From Lysobacter stagni (GTDB lineage Bacteria > Pseudomonadota > Gammaproteobacteria > Xanthomonadales > Xanthomonadaceae), in the NCBI RefSeq assembly GCF_030053425.1, contig NZ_JASGBI010000001.1, positions 938,001 through 1,002,000 on the forward strand: a DNA stretch of 64,000 nt, read 5' to 3'. The translations under genes and the position numbers were made by a program. Shown one piece after another: positions 4,249 through 45,124 of the stretch. A model generated the notes under the pieces. It searched no databases, was not told the origin of the DNA, and was given only the letters and a program-made list of their open reading frames with translations. The first letter of the stretch is position 1; each line of letters opens with the position of its first letter.

Positions 4249-5913
4249 TCACGGGTTGGCCGGTTTGCGCCCGAACTTCTCTCCGAAGAAATCGCCCGCG
4301 TTCCATACCGGACGCTGTGGCGCGTCGGCGATCAGGCGGCCGATGCGCGCGTTGAGCTTCGCCAGTCGAGCGGCGTCGCCGTACTGGATCGGCTGCGAGA
4401 GGTCGTCGCCGGGCTGGTGGTAGCGCTCGCGCAGGAAGGCCTCCAGGATCTTCTTCGCGTCGCCATCCACGCCCTCGTAGCCACCGTCCAGGTACACCGC
4501 CGGAATGCCCGCGCGGATGAAGGCGTACTGGTCGCTGCGAACGAACACCACTTCCTCCGGCGACGGATCCGGCGACAGCGACACCCCGATCTCCTTCGCC
4601 GCCTGTTGCACCAGCGGCTGCAGCGTGGAGTGCTCCAGGCCGATCGGCACCACGTCCTTCGTCGGCGCCAGCAGAATCGGCATGTCCATGTTGACGTTGG
4701 CGACCATCGATTCCTGCGGCACCGTGGGGTGACGGGCGAACCACTCCGCGCCCAGCAGGCCTTTCTCTTCCGCCGTCACCGCGACGAACAGCAGCGAACG
4801 CTGCGTGGCCGGGGCTTCGTGCGCGAGGCGATTGGCCGCCTCCAGCATCACCGCGATGCCCAGCGCGTTGTCGAGCGCGCCGTTGTAGATGGCATCGCCA
4901 TCCACGGGCGCACCGATGCCGACGTGGTCGAGGTGCGCGCTGAACACGACGTGCTCGTTCTTCTTCGATGCGTCGGCGCCGTCCACCCGCGCCACCACGT
5001 TGCGCGAATCGATCGGCGTGATCTGCGTGTGCGCATTCATGCGAACGGTGCCGGGCAGGTCGAACGCCTGCAGCTTGCCGTCGCGCAGCGCCTGGAACAG
5101 GCCCTTGGCGTCATGGCCGGATCCTGCCAGCAAGGCATCGGCGGCCGCCGCGCTGACACTGGCGCTGACGCGCAACTGCGGGAAGGTATCGATGCCCTTG
5201 CCGTCGTCGCCGCGCAGGCGCATGGCCGGGCGGTCCCAGTTGCGCGCACCGCGTTCCCACGGCGAACGCGTCTGCTCGTCATCGGTCTGCACGACGATCA
5301 CCCCGACCGCGCCACGACGCGCCAGCTCCTCGGCCTTGGTGCGGCGCGAGGAATAGAACGCGCGACGGTCGTTGTCGAAACGCGCCGGTGCGCTGCCGAA
5401 CATCACCGCGATCTTGCCCTTCACATCGACGCCGGCGAAATCGTCGTGCTTCAGTTCCGGCGCATGGACGCCCTGGCCCACGAACACCGCCGGGGCCTCC
5501 ACGCTGGCCTGCGCCTCATTGAAATTGACGCCGGGCAGGAACTCGTCGCGGAACACCAGCGCGCGCTCCTTGCCGTCGCGCGCGATCACCAGCGCATTGC
5601 CGTCGGCCTGCGTCACGCCGCGCAGCATGGGCACGCGCTGGTAGTACGAACCGTCGTCGCCCGCCGGCGCCAGACCCAGCGCGCGGAAGCGCTGCGCGAC
5701 GTACAGCGACGCCACGTCGTAGCCGCGGGTGCCGGCCTCGCGACCTTCCAGCAGGTCGTCGGCCAGGAAACGCACGTCCGCCTCGATGCGACGTGCATCG
5801 GCACTGGCGCTGGCGTCGTAGGTTTCCTTCACCGGCACGGCGGCGGTGGGCGGGGCCTCGCGCTGGCAGGCGGCGAGAGCGAGGGCAAGGCTCAACAGCG
5901 TGATGCGGCGCAT
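4249..5913 (-). CDS. M28 family zinc peptidase, lipoprotein
   Basis: 554 residues. The leader MRRITLLSLALALAACQRE has a lipobox (LAAC), so it is a probable lipoprotein in the periplasm or outer membrane. The middle region (VFVGQGV ... GKIAVMFG ... GAVGVIVVQ) is the PA-type inserted domain often found in M28 proteins. The catalytic part has zinc-ligand motifs HLDHVG (His, Asp), GALDNALG (bridging Asp), AEEKGLLG (general base and ligand Glu), NVNMDM (Asp) and YHQPGDD (His). M28 enzymes are aminopeptidases or carboxypeptidases on exported peptides. All expected metal ligands appear present. The substrate is unknown. Confidence 0.9.
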   Translation of the reverse strand: MRRITLLSLALALAACQREAPPTAAVPVKETYDASASADARRIEADVRFLADDLLEGREAGTRGYDVASLYVAQRFRALGLAPAGDDGSYYQRVPMLRGVTQADGNALVIARDGKERALVFRDEFLPGVNFNEAQASVEAPAVFVGQGVHAPELKHDDFAGVDVKGKIAVMFGSAPARFDNDRRAFYSSRRTKAEELARRGAVGVIVVQTDDEQTRSPWERGARNWDRPAMRLRGDDGKGIDTFPQLRVSASVSAAAADALLAGSGHDAKGLFQALRDGKLQAFDLPGTVRMNAHTQITPIDSRNVVARVDGADASKKNEHVVFSAHLDHVGIGAPVDGDAIYNGALDNALGIAVMLEAANRLAHEAPATQRSLLFVAVTAEEKGLLGAEWFARHPTVPQESMVANVNMDMPILLAPTKDVVPIGLEHSTLQPLVQQAAKEIGVSLSPDPSPEEVVFVRSDQYAFIRAGIPAVYLDGGYEGVDGDAKKILEAFLRERYHQPGDDLSQPIQYGDAARLAKLNARIGRLIADAPQRPVWNAGDFFGEKFGRKPANP

Positions 5914-42021: not shown

Positions 42022-43293
42022 GTGACCGACACCGCTCCCGTCCCGGGCGCGCGCCGCCGCGCCGCGCTCGTCTTCATCTTCGTCACGATCCTGATCGACG
42101 TGCTGTCGTTCGGTCTGATCATTCCAGTGCTGCCGCACCTGATCGAACAGTTCGCCGGGGGCGACACCGCGCATGCGGCGTACTGGGTGGCGGCCTTCGG
42201 TTTCCTGTTCGCCGGCATCCAGTTCGTGACCTCGCCGATCCAGGGCGCGCTGTCGGACCGTTTCGGCCGGCGCCCGGTGATCCTGCTCTCCTGCCTGGGC
42301 CTGGGCCTGGACTTCGTGTTCATGGCGTTGGCGCCGTCGCTGGCGTGGCTGCTGGTGGGCCGCATCATCTCGGGCATCACCTCCGCCAGCTTCACCACGG
42401 CCAACGCGTACGTCGCCGACGTGACGCCGCCGGAGAAGCGTGCGAAGAGCTACGGCATGCTCGGCGCCGCGTTCGGCGTGGGCTTCATCATCGGTCCGCT
42501 GATCGGCGGCGCGCTGGGCGAAGTCGACCTGCGGTTGCCGTTCTGGTTCGCCGCCGGACTGGCGCTCGTGAACTTCTGCTATGGCTTGTTCGTGCTGCCC
42601 GAGTCGCTGCCGAAGGAACGCCGCAGTGCGCGCTTCGACTGGTCGCACGCCAACCCGGTGGGCTCGCTCGCGCTGCTCAAGCGCTATCCGCAGGTGTTCG
42701 GCCTGGCCGCCGTGGTGTTCATCGCCAACCTGGCGCACTACGTGTATCCCAGCGTCTTCGTGCTGTTCGCCGACTACCAGTACCAGTGGGGCCCGCGCGA
42801 GGTGAGCTACGTGCTGGCGATCGTCGGCGTGCTGAACGTGATCGTGCAGGCAGGGCTGGTGGGCAAGGTGGTGCATGCGATGGGCGAACGCCGCGCGCTG
42901 ATCCTTGGCCTGACGTGCGGCGCGATCGGCTTCGGCATCTACGGCTTCGCCGACGTTGGCTGGGTGTTCCTGATCGGCCTGCCGGTGTCGGCCATCTGGG
43001 GCCTGGCCGCACCGTCCACGCAGGCGCTGATCACGCGCCAGGTGGGACCGGAAGTGCAGGGCCGCATCCAGGGTGCGCTGATGAGCCTGGTGAGTCTGGC
43101 CGGCATCATCGGCCCGGTCCTGTTCGCCGGCAGCTTCGGCTACTTCATCGACGATGCCGCACCGGTGCACCTGCCGGGTGCGCCGTTCCTCATCGCCGGC
43201 GTTCTGCTGGCGGTGGCGGTGGGGATCGCCTGGCGCTACGCACGCGTACCGGCGGCGACGCCGGTGACCGCGGTGGAAGCCGAGGCGCAGTGA
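42022..43293 (+). CDS. MFS transporter of the TCR/Tet family
   Basis: 423 residues with twelve membrane helices. Helix 1 LVFIFVTILIDVLSFGLIIPVLP and the loop 2-3 motif GALSDRFGRRPVILLS are typical of TetA-like drug/proton antiporters, as is GRIISGITSASFTTANAYVADVTPPEKRAKSYGM. Substrate is unknown. The start is GTG at 42022; no strong ribosome site is visible, so a few residues are uncertain. The gene is separate from its neighbours and convergent with the barstar gene. Confidence 0.88.
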   Translation: MTDTAPVPGARRRAALVFIFVTILIDVLSFGLIIPVLPHLIEQFAGGDTAHAAYWVAAFGFLFAGIQFVTSPIQGALSDRFGRRPVILLSCLGLGLDFVFMALAPSLAWLLVGRIISGITSASFTTANAYVADVTPPEKRAKSYGMLGAAFGVGFIIGPLIGGALGEVDLRLPFWFAAGLALVNFCYGLFVLPESLPKERRSARFDWSHANPVGSLALLKRYPQVFGLAAVVFIANLAHYVYPSVFVLFADYQYQWGPREVSYVLAIVGVLNVIVQAGLVGKVVHAMGERRALILGLTCGAIGFGIYGFADVGWVFLIGLPVSAIWGLAAPSTQALITRQVGPEVQGRIQGALMSLVSLAGIIGPVLFAGSFGYFIDDAAPVHLPGAPFLIAGVLLAVAVGIAWRYARVPAATPVTAVEAEAQ

Positions 43294-43415: not shown

Positions 43416-43853
43416 TCAGTCTTCCAGCGACGTGAGCAGCTCGCCCGGGAACGGCAGCAGCGCCCAGAACGCGATGTCCTCGCGCGCCCATTCGAACGCC
43501 GCTTCATTGAAGACTTCCAGCAGCGTGTCGAACTCCTGCAGGTTCGCCGCGCGCCAGGTCGAGGCGTTCTCGACCAGCAGCACGTAGCCCGGTGCCGGTC
43601 GCCAGGACAGATCGCGCAGGGCGTCCGACAGCGCATCCCAGTTGGCGCCGACCCACTCCGGGAACCCGCCCGCCTTCGCCAGCCGTTCCATCAAGCCCGC
43701 CTTGTCGGTGCAACCGGCCAGGTCCACGCGCATCACCGCGTAGTCCAGCCCCGCGCCCGCCTGCGCCATCACTTCGGCATCGCGTTCGTCGATGAAGTAG
43801 GCGCCGCTGTGCTCGGCGTCGGCAAGGATCGAACGCAGGTCCACGGCGTTCAT
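43416..43853 (-). CDS. barstar family RNase inhibitor
   Basis: 145 residues, with the C-terminal ~95 matching barstar: LAKAGGFPEWVGANWDALSDALRDL corresponds to barstar's region that plugs barnase, and both interface Asp are kept (WDA and SDA). There is an N-terminal extension of ~45 residues. It should be cytoplasmic and neutralise the RNase made by the upstream gene before export. The start overlaps the RNase stop (ATGA at 43850-43853), so both are made together. Confidence 0.9.
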   Translation of the reverse strand: MNAVDLRSILADAEHSGAYFIDERDAEVMAQAGAGLDYAVMRVDLAGCTDKAGLMERLAKAGGFPEWVGANWDALSDALRDLSWRPAPGYVLLVENASTWRAANLQEFDTLLEVFNEAAFEWAREDIAFWALLPFPGELLTSLED

Positions 43854-44275
43854 CGACGCACCTGCGGCGAGGACCATTCAAAGCGGCGGAAACTGCCGTA
43901 GTGATCGTCGGTGTACCAGTACTCCACCGGTGGATCGCCTCCGGCAACGATGCGGCGTGGGCCGCGGTCGTTCGACCCGGGTGTGGGCACGGTGTACTCG
44001 CGGTAGTAACCCGAAGCCTGCGGCGGCAGCCGGCCTTCGCGATTCTGGAACACGCTGCCGTCCTGGCGGAACGGATGCGCCTGGCCGCTCGCGATGCGAT
44101 CGAGCACCGCATGCGCCTCCACCGGCAGGAACGCGGGATAGACCGTGCCCTGCGCACTCTGTGTAAGCGCCGGCCCGGGTGGCGTACGCAACTCGCCGTC
44201 GCCGGAGCGCTTGCTCCACAGCCACAGTCCCAGCAGCGCGACGATGGCGACCAGCCAGATGTGTCGACGGCGCAC
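43850..44275 (-). CDS. guanyl-specific ribonuclease (Sa/barnase family), exported or membrane-anchored
   Basis: 141 residues. An N-terminal hydrophobic segment (IWLVAIVALLGLWLW) serves as signal or anchor. Residues ~46-133 closely match RNase Sa: PAFLPVEAHAVLDRIASG, GSVFQNREGRLP, SGYYREYTVPTPG, PRRIV and DDHYGSFRRF. The catalytic triad is Glu93, Arg108 and His125 by alignment. It has no Cys, so lacks the Sa disulfide. GTG at 44275 was chosen because GGAGG (44283-44287) is 7 bases upstream; a TTG at 44299 is less likely. Its inhibitor follows with a four-base overlap. Confidence 0.9.
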   Translation of the reverse strand: MRRRHIWLVAIVALLGLWLWSKRSGDGELRTPPGPALTQSAQGTVYPAFLPVEAHAVLDRIASGQAHPFRQDGSVFQNREGRLPPQASGYYREYTVPTPGSNDRGPRRIVAGGDPPVEYWYTDDHYGSFRRFEWSSPQVRR

Positions 44276-44295
44276 GGTCGTGCCTCCGGATGGAA

Positions 44296-44592
44296 TCAAC
44301 CGCAGCGGATGCCGGTGATCGCGCCGCGGTCGTTGAGGTCGACGTTCACGCGATCCTCGCGGAAGTCCATCGTCGCCGGCTGGCCCGGACGCAGCACGCG
44401 TGCATCGCGGCTGCCGGTGTCGTGCAGGATGCGGTTGACCACGTCGTCATTCACGGCCGAGCCGATCGCCCAGCGCGCACCTTCGGCATTGCACACGCCG
44501 GTGGGCGGCTGGGCAGTTCCTGCGGCCGGAGGCGTCGACGCGCATGCGCAAAGCGAGGCGATGGTGGCGGCGAGCAGGAAGCTGCGGAACAT
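44296..44592 (-). CDS. I78 family peptidase inhibitor, lipoprotein
   Basis: 98 residues. The leader SFLLAATIASLCACAS has a lipobox. The mature part has the I78 pattern: GVCNAEGARWAIG, RVLRPGQPATMDFREDRVNV and GAITGIRCG, with two Cys (first in GVCNAEG, last in RCG) that may pair. I78 proteins inhibit serine proteases from bacteria and fungi. It lies 20 bases upstream of the RNase gene on the same strand, so the three genes are likely one transcript. Confidence 0.88.
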   Translation of the reverse strand: MFRSFLLAATIASLCACASTPPAAGTAQPPTGVCNAEGARWAIGSAVNDDVVNRILHDTGSRDARVLRPGQPATMDFREDRVNVDLNDRGAITGIRCG

Positions 44593-44875: not shown

Positions 44876-45046
44876 CAAAACCGTTGGCTCCCTACGCGAT
44901 CCGCCGCTGCGCGGCGGTTCCCTGCGCTCCTCGCCGGAAAAGGGACGTCGCCCAAACTCGCGCCGCTTCGCGGCACTCAAACAATGGGCGACTCTTCGCC
45001 CTTCTCCGGCTCCGGTGCTCGGCTCGCTCCGAAGTCGCAAGATCAA

Positions 45047-45124
<78 letters not shown>

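What the first reader, a model, noticed from the sequence alone, without database searches (positions are those of the whole stretch)
43416..44592. RNase Sa-like enzyme, barstar and I78 protease inhibitor in one minus-strand cluster
The sequence shows a guanyl-specific RNase with all catalytic residues (Glu93, Arg108, His125), an overlapping barstar that keeps the two interface Asp, and a lipoprotein I78 inhibitor 20 bases upstream. Barnase/barstar pairs are established, but coupling with an I78 inhibitor, a membrane-anchored RNase without Cys and a 45-residue barstar extension is unusual. Inference: a defence or predation unit in which the enzyme reaches the envelope, barstar protects the cytoplasm and I78 guards against proteases.
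Basis: partly seen in the sequence, partly recalled or inferred. Interest (0 to 1): 0.72.

Follow-up and report, generated by a model that had tools for sequence, protein, structure and literature searches.

The report
Membrane-tethered RNase with its antidote
This bacterium encodes an RNA-cutting enzyme that appears to be tethered to its inner membrane, with a matching antidote protein made from the next, overlapping gene; the pair is a known kind of system, the tether is the unusual part, and the protease-inhibitor gene beside it belongs to one branch of the bacterial family only.

Summary
In detail: on the minus strand lie an I78-type lipoprotein, an RNase Sa-like enzyme with its catalytic residues, and a barstar whose ATG overlaps the RNase stop.

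In a sample of 149 genomes of the family, 91 have the RNase (93 places); 90 of the 93 places have barstar directly downstream. Of the other three, one is cut by a contig end and two are divergent, Cys-rich extra copies. The 91 main copies carry an N-terminal hydrophobic anchor, a Pro/Ala-rich linker and the RNase domain; 90 have no Cys. Both interface Asp of barstar are present in 90 of 90 paired copies; three unpaired barstars of this type have lost one or both.

The I78 neighbour is clade-specific: 36 of 93 places, always upstream on the same strand; on the tree it fits one gain and two losses.

Best reading: an exported, membrane-tethered periplasmic RNase with a translationally coupled cytoplasmic safety inhibitor. 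Defence or predation, and I78 as bodyguard, have no direct support. Simple barnase-barstar pairs are already described; the tethered form is a new variant as far as the searched papers show. Topology rests on sequence rules only; no structure could be predicted.

The parts
44296..44592 (-). I78-type peptidase inhibitor gene, predicted lipoprotein (98 aa)
   Evidence: PF11720 E 3e-14, residues 34-98; coordinates
44542..44553 (-). Lipobox-like residues 14-17 (Leu-Cys-Ala-Cys) of the I78 protein
   Evidence: read from the translation; a loose lipobox pattern is found in all 47 I78 copies near the RNase
44283..44287 (-). GGAGG, ribosome-binding-site-like, before the RNase GTG
   Evidence: sequence
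43850..44275 (-). RNase Sa-like gene, GTG start to TGA stop (141 aa)
   Evidence: PF00545 E 5.9e-21; RNase Sa3 E 4.5e-26
44216..44263 (-). Hydrophobic anchor, residues 5-20 of the RNase
   Evidence: sequence and hydropathy; no strict A-x-A site after it
44141..44215 (-). Linker, residues 21-45 of the RNase
   Evidence: between the anchor and the Pfam/Sa3 match
43880..44140 (-). Catalytic domain, residues 46-132, with Glu93 (43997-43999), Arg108 (43952-43954), His125 (43901-43903)
   Evidence: Pfam and RNase Sa3 alignment; conservation
43850..43853 (-). ATGA overlap of RNase stop and barstar start
   Evidence: sequence; the same 4-nt overlap in 86 of 90 family pairs
43416..43853 (-). Barstar gene (145 aa)
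   Evidence: PF01337 E 3.4e-29, residues 39-133
43740..43853 (-). N-terminal extension of barstar, residues 1-38
   Evidence: before the Pfam match; 35-53 residues in 90 of 90 paired copies
43623..43637 (-). Stretch with the interface Asp: D73 (43635-43637) and D77 (43623-43625)
   Evidence: align with Asp35 and Asp39 of barstar (the role of these two is recalled); 90 of 90 in paired copies

Best explanation
A chromosomal enzyme-inhibitor pair. The RNase is inserted in the inner membrane by an uncleaved N-terminal signal-anchor, and its Cys-free catalytic domain is held in the periplasm on a flexible linker, where it cuts RNA after guanine, most likely RNA that arrives in or passes through the envelope (scavenging or clearance). 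Because the domain needs no disulfide it could fold in the cytoplasm when export is slow or fails; barstar, made from the overlapping ATG, plugs the active site there as a safety. I78 is a periplasm-facing lipoprotein that joined the locus once, in one clade, and may protect envelope proteins from serine proteases. Shown: gene order, catalytic and interface residues, overlap, conservation, tree pattern. Inferred: membrane topology, activity, binding, translational coupling, substrate and biological role.
For: 90 of 93 RNase places have barstar directly downstream on the same strand; all 91 RNase genomes of the sample also have a barstar match, and 3 genomes have barstar without RNase, one of them at a contig start. 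Four-nt overlap in 86 of 90 pairs, D73 and D77 in 90 of 90 and invariant in a 63-sequence wider alignment. Catalytic residues conserved. No strict A-x-A in 91 of 91 main copies against 13 of 13 Streptomyces with one, and N-flank charge above C-flank in 91 of 91 rows. No Cys in 90 of 91 main RNases, while 80 of 90 barstars have one or more, as expected for different compartments. Unpaired barstars of this type: G031 D77E beside an RNase gene left with anchor and linker only, G107 D73E, second copy in G121 both lost. PMC3482391 (passages) links toxin-then-inhibitor order with outward traffic of the toxin; PMC8403359 (passages) states that barnase in the E. coli cytoplasm is toxic without its inhibitor.
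Against: Topology rests on simple sequence rules; a first, looser rule called 69 of the 91 main copies cleavable, with the cut inside the hydrophobic core. No activity, binding or localisation data. Barstar pairing does not need a tether: 6 of 10 Rhodocyclales copies have an A-x-A site and all 10 have barstar. Five of six solitary barstars of other types keep both Asp without an adjacent RNase of this kind, so the Asp pair is not a mark of this RNase alone. No evidence for RNA in the periplasm.
Confidence: 0.55

Rival explanations
1. The signal is cleaved and the RNase is released into periplasm or medium, as for classical barnase and RNase Sa; there is no tether.
For: The looser signal-peptide rule called 69 of 91 main copies cleavable. 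Related RNases in Rhodocyclales (6 of 10) and Streptomyces (13 of 13) have A-x-A sites. Dedicated predictors were not available.
Against: No strict A-x-A in 91 of 91 main copies; in 83 of 91 a Trp stands at or just after the end of the hydrophobic stretch; the looser rule cut inside the hydrophobic core.
Confidence: 0.25
2. A weapon or defence unit: the RNase kills competitors, prey or infected cells and barstar is immunity.
For: Barstar is a known immunity protein of polymorphic toxins (PMC3482391, passages). Lysobacter relatives are lytic predators (recalled).
Against: 141 aa with one Pfam domain and about nine residues after it, so no room for a delivery domain; PADLOC gave only barstar to JetD at E 0.038; no phage match; one main copy per genome in 91 genomes, low polymorphism of the interface.
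Confidence: 0.1
3. A regulated cytoplasmic toxin-antitoxin pair at the membrane (RNase domain inside the cell).
For: Tight coupling and strict pairing; charged residues also follow the anchor in many copies.
Against: Charge bias favours N-in/C-out in 91 of 91 rows (one of these rows, L064, was read from an internal start); toxin-first order fits exported toxins (PMC3482391); Cys-free RNase against Cys-containing barstar.
Confidence: 0.1
4. The I78 gene is only a passenger: the linkage reflects inherited gene order in one clade and not joint function.
For: Single origin on the tree (3 changes); an MFS gene is kept beside the pair in 31 of 37 of the same clade; I78-RNase gaps range from 3 to 2259 nt and only 19 of 36 are 120 nt or less; two clade members lost I78 and kept the pair.
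Against: I78 is kept in 35 of 37, always upstream on the same strand; all six clade loci without the MFS gene within about 10 kb (four branches) still have it; the other upstream gene DUF938 is within 4.5 kb in only 8 of 37.
Confidence: 0.5

Closest known systems
Barnase-barstar of Bacillus and the 'simple barnase-barstar gene pairs' of PMC3482391
   Same: Guanyl-RNase followed by a barstar; two interface Asp; Cys-free enzyme (for barnase recalled)
   Different: Enzyme domain is RNase Sa-like and looks membrane-anchored on a linker; barstar has a 38-residue N-terminal extension and overlaps the RNase gene by 4 nt
RNase Sa / Sa3 of Streptomyces
   Same: Closest solved sequence (E 4.5e-26); same catalytic and base-recognition residues
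   Different: Streptomyces copies here have A-x-A signals, two Cys and no barstar found beside them (13 of 13 read); the window enzyme has an anchor, no Cys and an adjacent barstar
Rhodocyclales RNase-barstar pairs (Zoogloea, Sulfuritalea, Thauera, Aromatoleum)
   Same: Cys-poor Sa-like RNase with adjacent barstar, 10 of 10
   Different: A-x-A signal (6 of 10) or lipobox-like motif (5 of 10, one with both) in place of a membrane anchor
I78 peptidase inhibitor family (PF11720)
   Same: Family match over the cut-off, predicted lipoprotein
   Different: Placed upstream of an RNase-barstar pair, in one clade only
Polymorphic toxin systems with Imm-Barstar (PMC3482391)
   Same: Barnase-like toxin then barstar gene order
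   Different: No trafficking or repeat domain, small single-domain protein, no toxin polymorphism seen

Membership tests
Guanyl-specific microbial RNase (PF00545, RNase Sa-like) | Family profile match over the curated cut-off | tested here: met
   75.3 bits, cut-off 24
Guanyl-specific microbial RNase (PF00545, RNase Sa-like) | Catalytic Glu, Arg, His | tested here: met
   E93, R108, H125; 92/93, 93/93, 93/93 in the sample
Guanyl-specific microbial RNase (PF00545, RNase Sa-like) | Disulfide of RNase Sa (recalled) | tested here: not met
   no Cys in the window enzyme; absent in barnase too (recalled), so not defining for the wider family
Guanyl-specific microbial RNase (PF00545, RNase Sa-like) | Cleavage of RNA after G | not testable with these tools
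   needs an assay
Barstar (PF01337) | Family profile match over the curated cut-off | tested here: met
   101.1 bits, cut-off 23.4
Barstar (PF01337) | Two interface Asp (DxxxD) | tested here: met
   D73 and D77, 90 of 90 paired copies
Barstar (PF01337) | Binds and inhibits the neighbouring RNase | not testable with these tools
   complex prediction not available; monomer prediction failed because the machine was busy
I78 peptidase inhibitor (PF11720) | Family profile match over the curated cut-off | tested here: met
   53.3 bits, cut-off 23.6
I78 peptidase inhibitor (PF11720) | Inhibits serine peptidases | not testable with these tools
   needs an assay
Secreted (released) barnase or RNase Sa type | Cleavable export signal | tested here: inconclusive
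   strict A-x-A 0 of 91 main copies, but a looser rule called 69 of 91 cleavable; no dedicated predictor
Polymorphic toxin system | N-terminal trafficking or repeat domains on the toxin | tested here: not met
   only PF00545 found in a 141-aa protein
Known anti-phage defence system (PADLOC-DB 2.0.0) | Match to a defence protein model | tested here: not met
   RNase and I78 none at E up to 1; barstar only JetD at E 0.038 over 24 residues

The most novel reading that the evidence does not exclude
Xanthomonadales keep a standing, membrane-tethered RNA-degrading layer in the periplasm: a separate, long-lived branch of the barnase-barstar kind in which the enzyme is retained on the cell instead of secreted, and in which dependence on barstar goes with having given up the disulfide. 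Lipobox-bearing copies with barstar in Thauera and Aromatoleum hint that retention evolved more than once.
Probability: 0.35. Interest if true: 0.6.

Novelty: new variant of a known kind. Interest (0 to 1): 0.42.

Why it matters
If right, a textbook secreted enzyme-inhibitor pair has a widespread retained form in Gram-negative bacteria, including Xanthomonas and Stenotrophomonas, whose periplasmic RNA substrate is unknown. It makes two questions testable: which RNA is met in the periplasm, and whether losing the disulfide is what ties an RNase to a cytoplasmic inhibitor. The natural loss cases (RNase gone, barstar interface Asp changed) are a ready test of what keeps the interface conserved.

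Tried and rejected
Looser signal-peptide rule: it placed the cut inside the hydrophobic core in most rows, so I replaced it by a strict A-x-A rule plus charge bias. The stricter rule was written after seeing the first one fail, and neither is a trained predictor. Linker length by a QDG motif: 81 of 91 rows gave 22-75 residues, the other ten gave negative or odd values and were not used. The start picker took an internal start in one locus (L064/G050), where an upstream ATG gives the anchor. The gene caller recovered barstar in only 41 loci because an antisense frame competed, so barstar was extracted from the Pfam places instead. The lipobox pattern is loose and was run on stop-to-stop frames.

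Disulfide idea: in the named loci, two or more Cys goes with no barstar in 13 and with barstar in 2; fewer than two Cys goes with barstar in 64 and without in 0. It is confounded, because all 13 are Streptomyces, and two further loci of other families have two Cys and a barstar (L131, L132). Kept as an idea only.

Solitary barstars: of 11 barstar places away from an RNase, two are at contig ends (G030, G066; both Asp kept), three are of this type and altered (G031, G107, second copy in G121), and six look like other barstar types. Five of these six keep both Asp and one (G090) has Asn at the first, so Asp loss is not general to solitary barstars.

Polymorphic toxin, defence and mobile-element readings were considered and set aside. 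Barstar structure (A3) was requested and RNase structure (A4); the machine was busy each time, so there is no model, fold search or complex. Paper searches: in the listings I saw no study of this locus or of a membrane-tethered RNase-barstar pair; several listings were capped (517, 1,057 and 501 papers, of which 25, 20 and 8 were listed) and the library holds open-licence papers only.

Full report
What is there. The three genes lie at the stated coordinates and all three proteins pass Pfam's curated cut-offs. The RNase is closest to Streptomyces RNase Sa3 among solved proteins; barstar is only weakly similar to solved barstars by sequence (E 0.14). The RNase starts at a GTG 20 nt after the I78 stop, behind a GGAGG, and its stop overlaps the barstar ATG as ATGA. 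The barstar extension is about 38 residues, not 45.

Distribution. In a sample of 149 genomes of the family, RNase is in 91, barstar in 94 and I78 in 118. Joining the tables by position, 90 of 93 RNase places have barstar directly downstream on the same strand. The three exceptions: in G066 the contig ends 56 bases after the RNase match, and a barstar sits at the end of another contig; G085:C2 and the second G101 copy are divergent forms with A-x-A signals and 4-5 Cys. In the class, 15 of 369 genomes have the RNase family, 11 of them outside the family, and 10 of those 11 loci hold a barstar match (two of them weak). In the order, 57 of 200, 31 of these in the family. No phage record matches the RNase at E 1e-5; 15 plasmid records do.

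Anatomy of the pair. I took 93 loci and aligned the proteins. Catalytic Glu is 92/93, Arg 93/93, His 93/93. Each of the 91 main copies has a start giving an N-terminal hydrophobic stretch, followed by a Pro/Ala-rich linker. Strict A-x-A sites: 0 of 91 family copies, 0 of 28 and 0 of 11 loci named Xanthomonadaceae/Lysobacterales and Rhodanobacteraceae, 6 of 10 Rhodocyclales, 4 of 17 others, 13 of 13 Streptomyces. N-flank charge (counting the N-terminus) exceeds C-flank charge in 91 of 91 rows, one of them (L064) read from an internal start; by the positive-inside rule (general knowledge) this puts the RNase domain outside the cytoplasm. RNase is Cys-free in 90 of 91 main copies, while 80 of 90 barstars have at least one Cys. 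The overlap is 4 nt in 86 of 90 pairs.

The named sample. In the 79 loci where a start could be read, barstar was found adjacent in 28/28 Xanthomonadaceae or Lysobacterales, 11/11 Rhodanobacteraceae, 10/10 Rhodocyclales, 17/17 others and 0/13 Streptomyces, with a profile built from family barstars. One more Streptomyces locus, at a contig edge, could not be read. I78 was adjacent in 8 of the 28 and in none of the other 51. Five of ten Rhodocyclales copies have a lipobox-like motif, one of them also A-x-A.

What keeps the interface. D73 and D77 are in 90 of 90 paired family barstars and invariant in a 63-sequence alignment of the window and named loci. Of 11 barstar places away from an RNase, two are at contig ends and keep both Asp (G030, G066). 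Three are of this type and altered: G031 has D77E, its RNase gene reduced to anchor and linker and no RNase match in the genome; G107 has D73E and no RNase; a second copy in G121 has lost both, while that genome keeps a normal pair elsewhere. The other six are other barstar types; five keep both Asp. The three cases are few but all fit the idea that the RNase holds the two Asp in this type.

The I78 neighbour. A local profile found I78 in 36 of 93 loci, 47 copies, all upstream on the same strand and all with a loose lipobox pattern; the nearest copy is 120 nt or less from the RNase start in 19 of 36, and gaps reach 2259 nt. The 36 genomes span 16 of the 34 genera with RNase. On a tree of RNase plus barstar (90 loci, 252 columns, FastTree, midpoint root) the trait needs 3 changes; 500 shuffles gave a mean of 27.9 and a minimum of 21. 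The clade has 37 members (support 0.865), 35 with I78; the other 53 loci have none. G066, with I78, is not in the tree because its barstar is on another contig. In the same clade the pair sits beside an MFS gene in 31 of 37 and gltB in 22 of 37, and in 0 of 53 elsewhere, so part of the linkage is regional gene order. Yet the six clade loci without the MFS gene, checked to about 10 kb, all keep I78. I read this as one ancient joining with some tendency to stay, not as proof of joint function.

Mechanism. The best reading is an exported, tethered RNase with a cytoplasmic safety inhibitor. PMC3482391 (passages read) argues that toxin-then-inhibitor order is possible when the toxin is trafficked outward, and mentions widely distributed simple barnase-barstar pairs. 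PMC8403359 (passages read) states that barnase expression in the cytoplasm is toxic without the inhibitor. Both fit. What the enzyme does in the periplasm is not shown; scavenging or clearing RNA is my guess.

Known or new. The kind is known. A tethered, Cys-free, Sa-like form with an extended, overlapping barstar across a bacterial family was not seen in the listings of seven searches of the held library, some of them capped. I call it a new variant of a known kind.

Noticed in passing
L218 (G031:C1:41000-51000), about 4287-5246: An RNase gene reduced to anchor and linker, its catalytic domain absent, still overlapping an intact barstar frame whose second interface Asp has become Glu.
   Followed up: partly
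L235 (plasmid NZ_AP019818.1, 107664-113897): An RNase of this family with an annotated barstar directly downstream, between IS elements and near a metallo-beta-lactamase gene on an IncC conjugative plasmid of Enterobacter hormaechei.
   Followed up: no
L123 (G085:C2) and L124 (second copy in G101): Divergent RNases with an A-x-A signal, 4-5 Cys and no barstar beside them, in genomes that also hold the anchored Cys-free form.
   Followed up: partly
L107 (G021), L114 (G066), L139, L155: Two or three I78 genes in a row upstream of the RNase.
   Followed up: no
window 42022-43293: MFS gene downstream of barstar on the opposite strand, resembling Tet(A)/(B)/(C)-type efflux proteins but far below the curated cut-off (307 of 475 bits).
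   Followed up: no
window 45044-45123: Short hexamer-based tandem repeats (CAGCGC and CAGCAA units) just upstream of the DUF938 methyltransferase gene.
   Followed up: no
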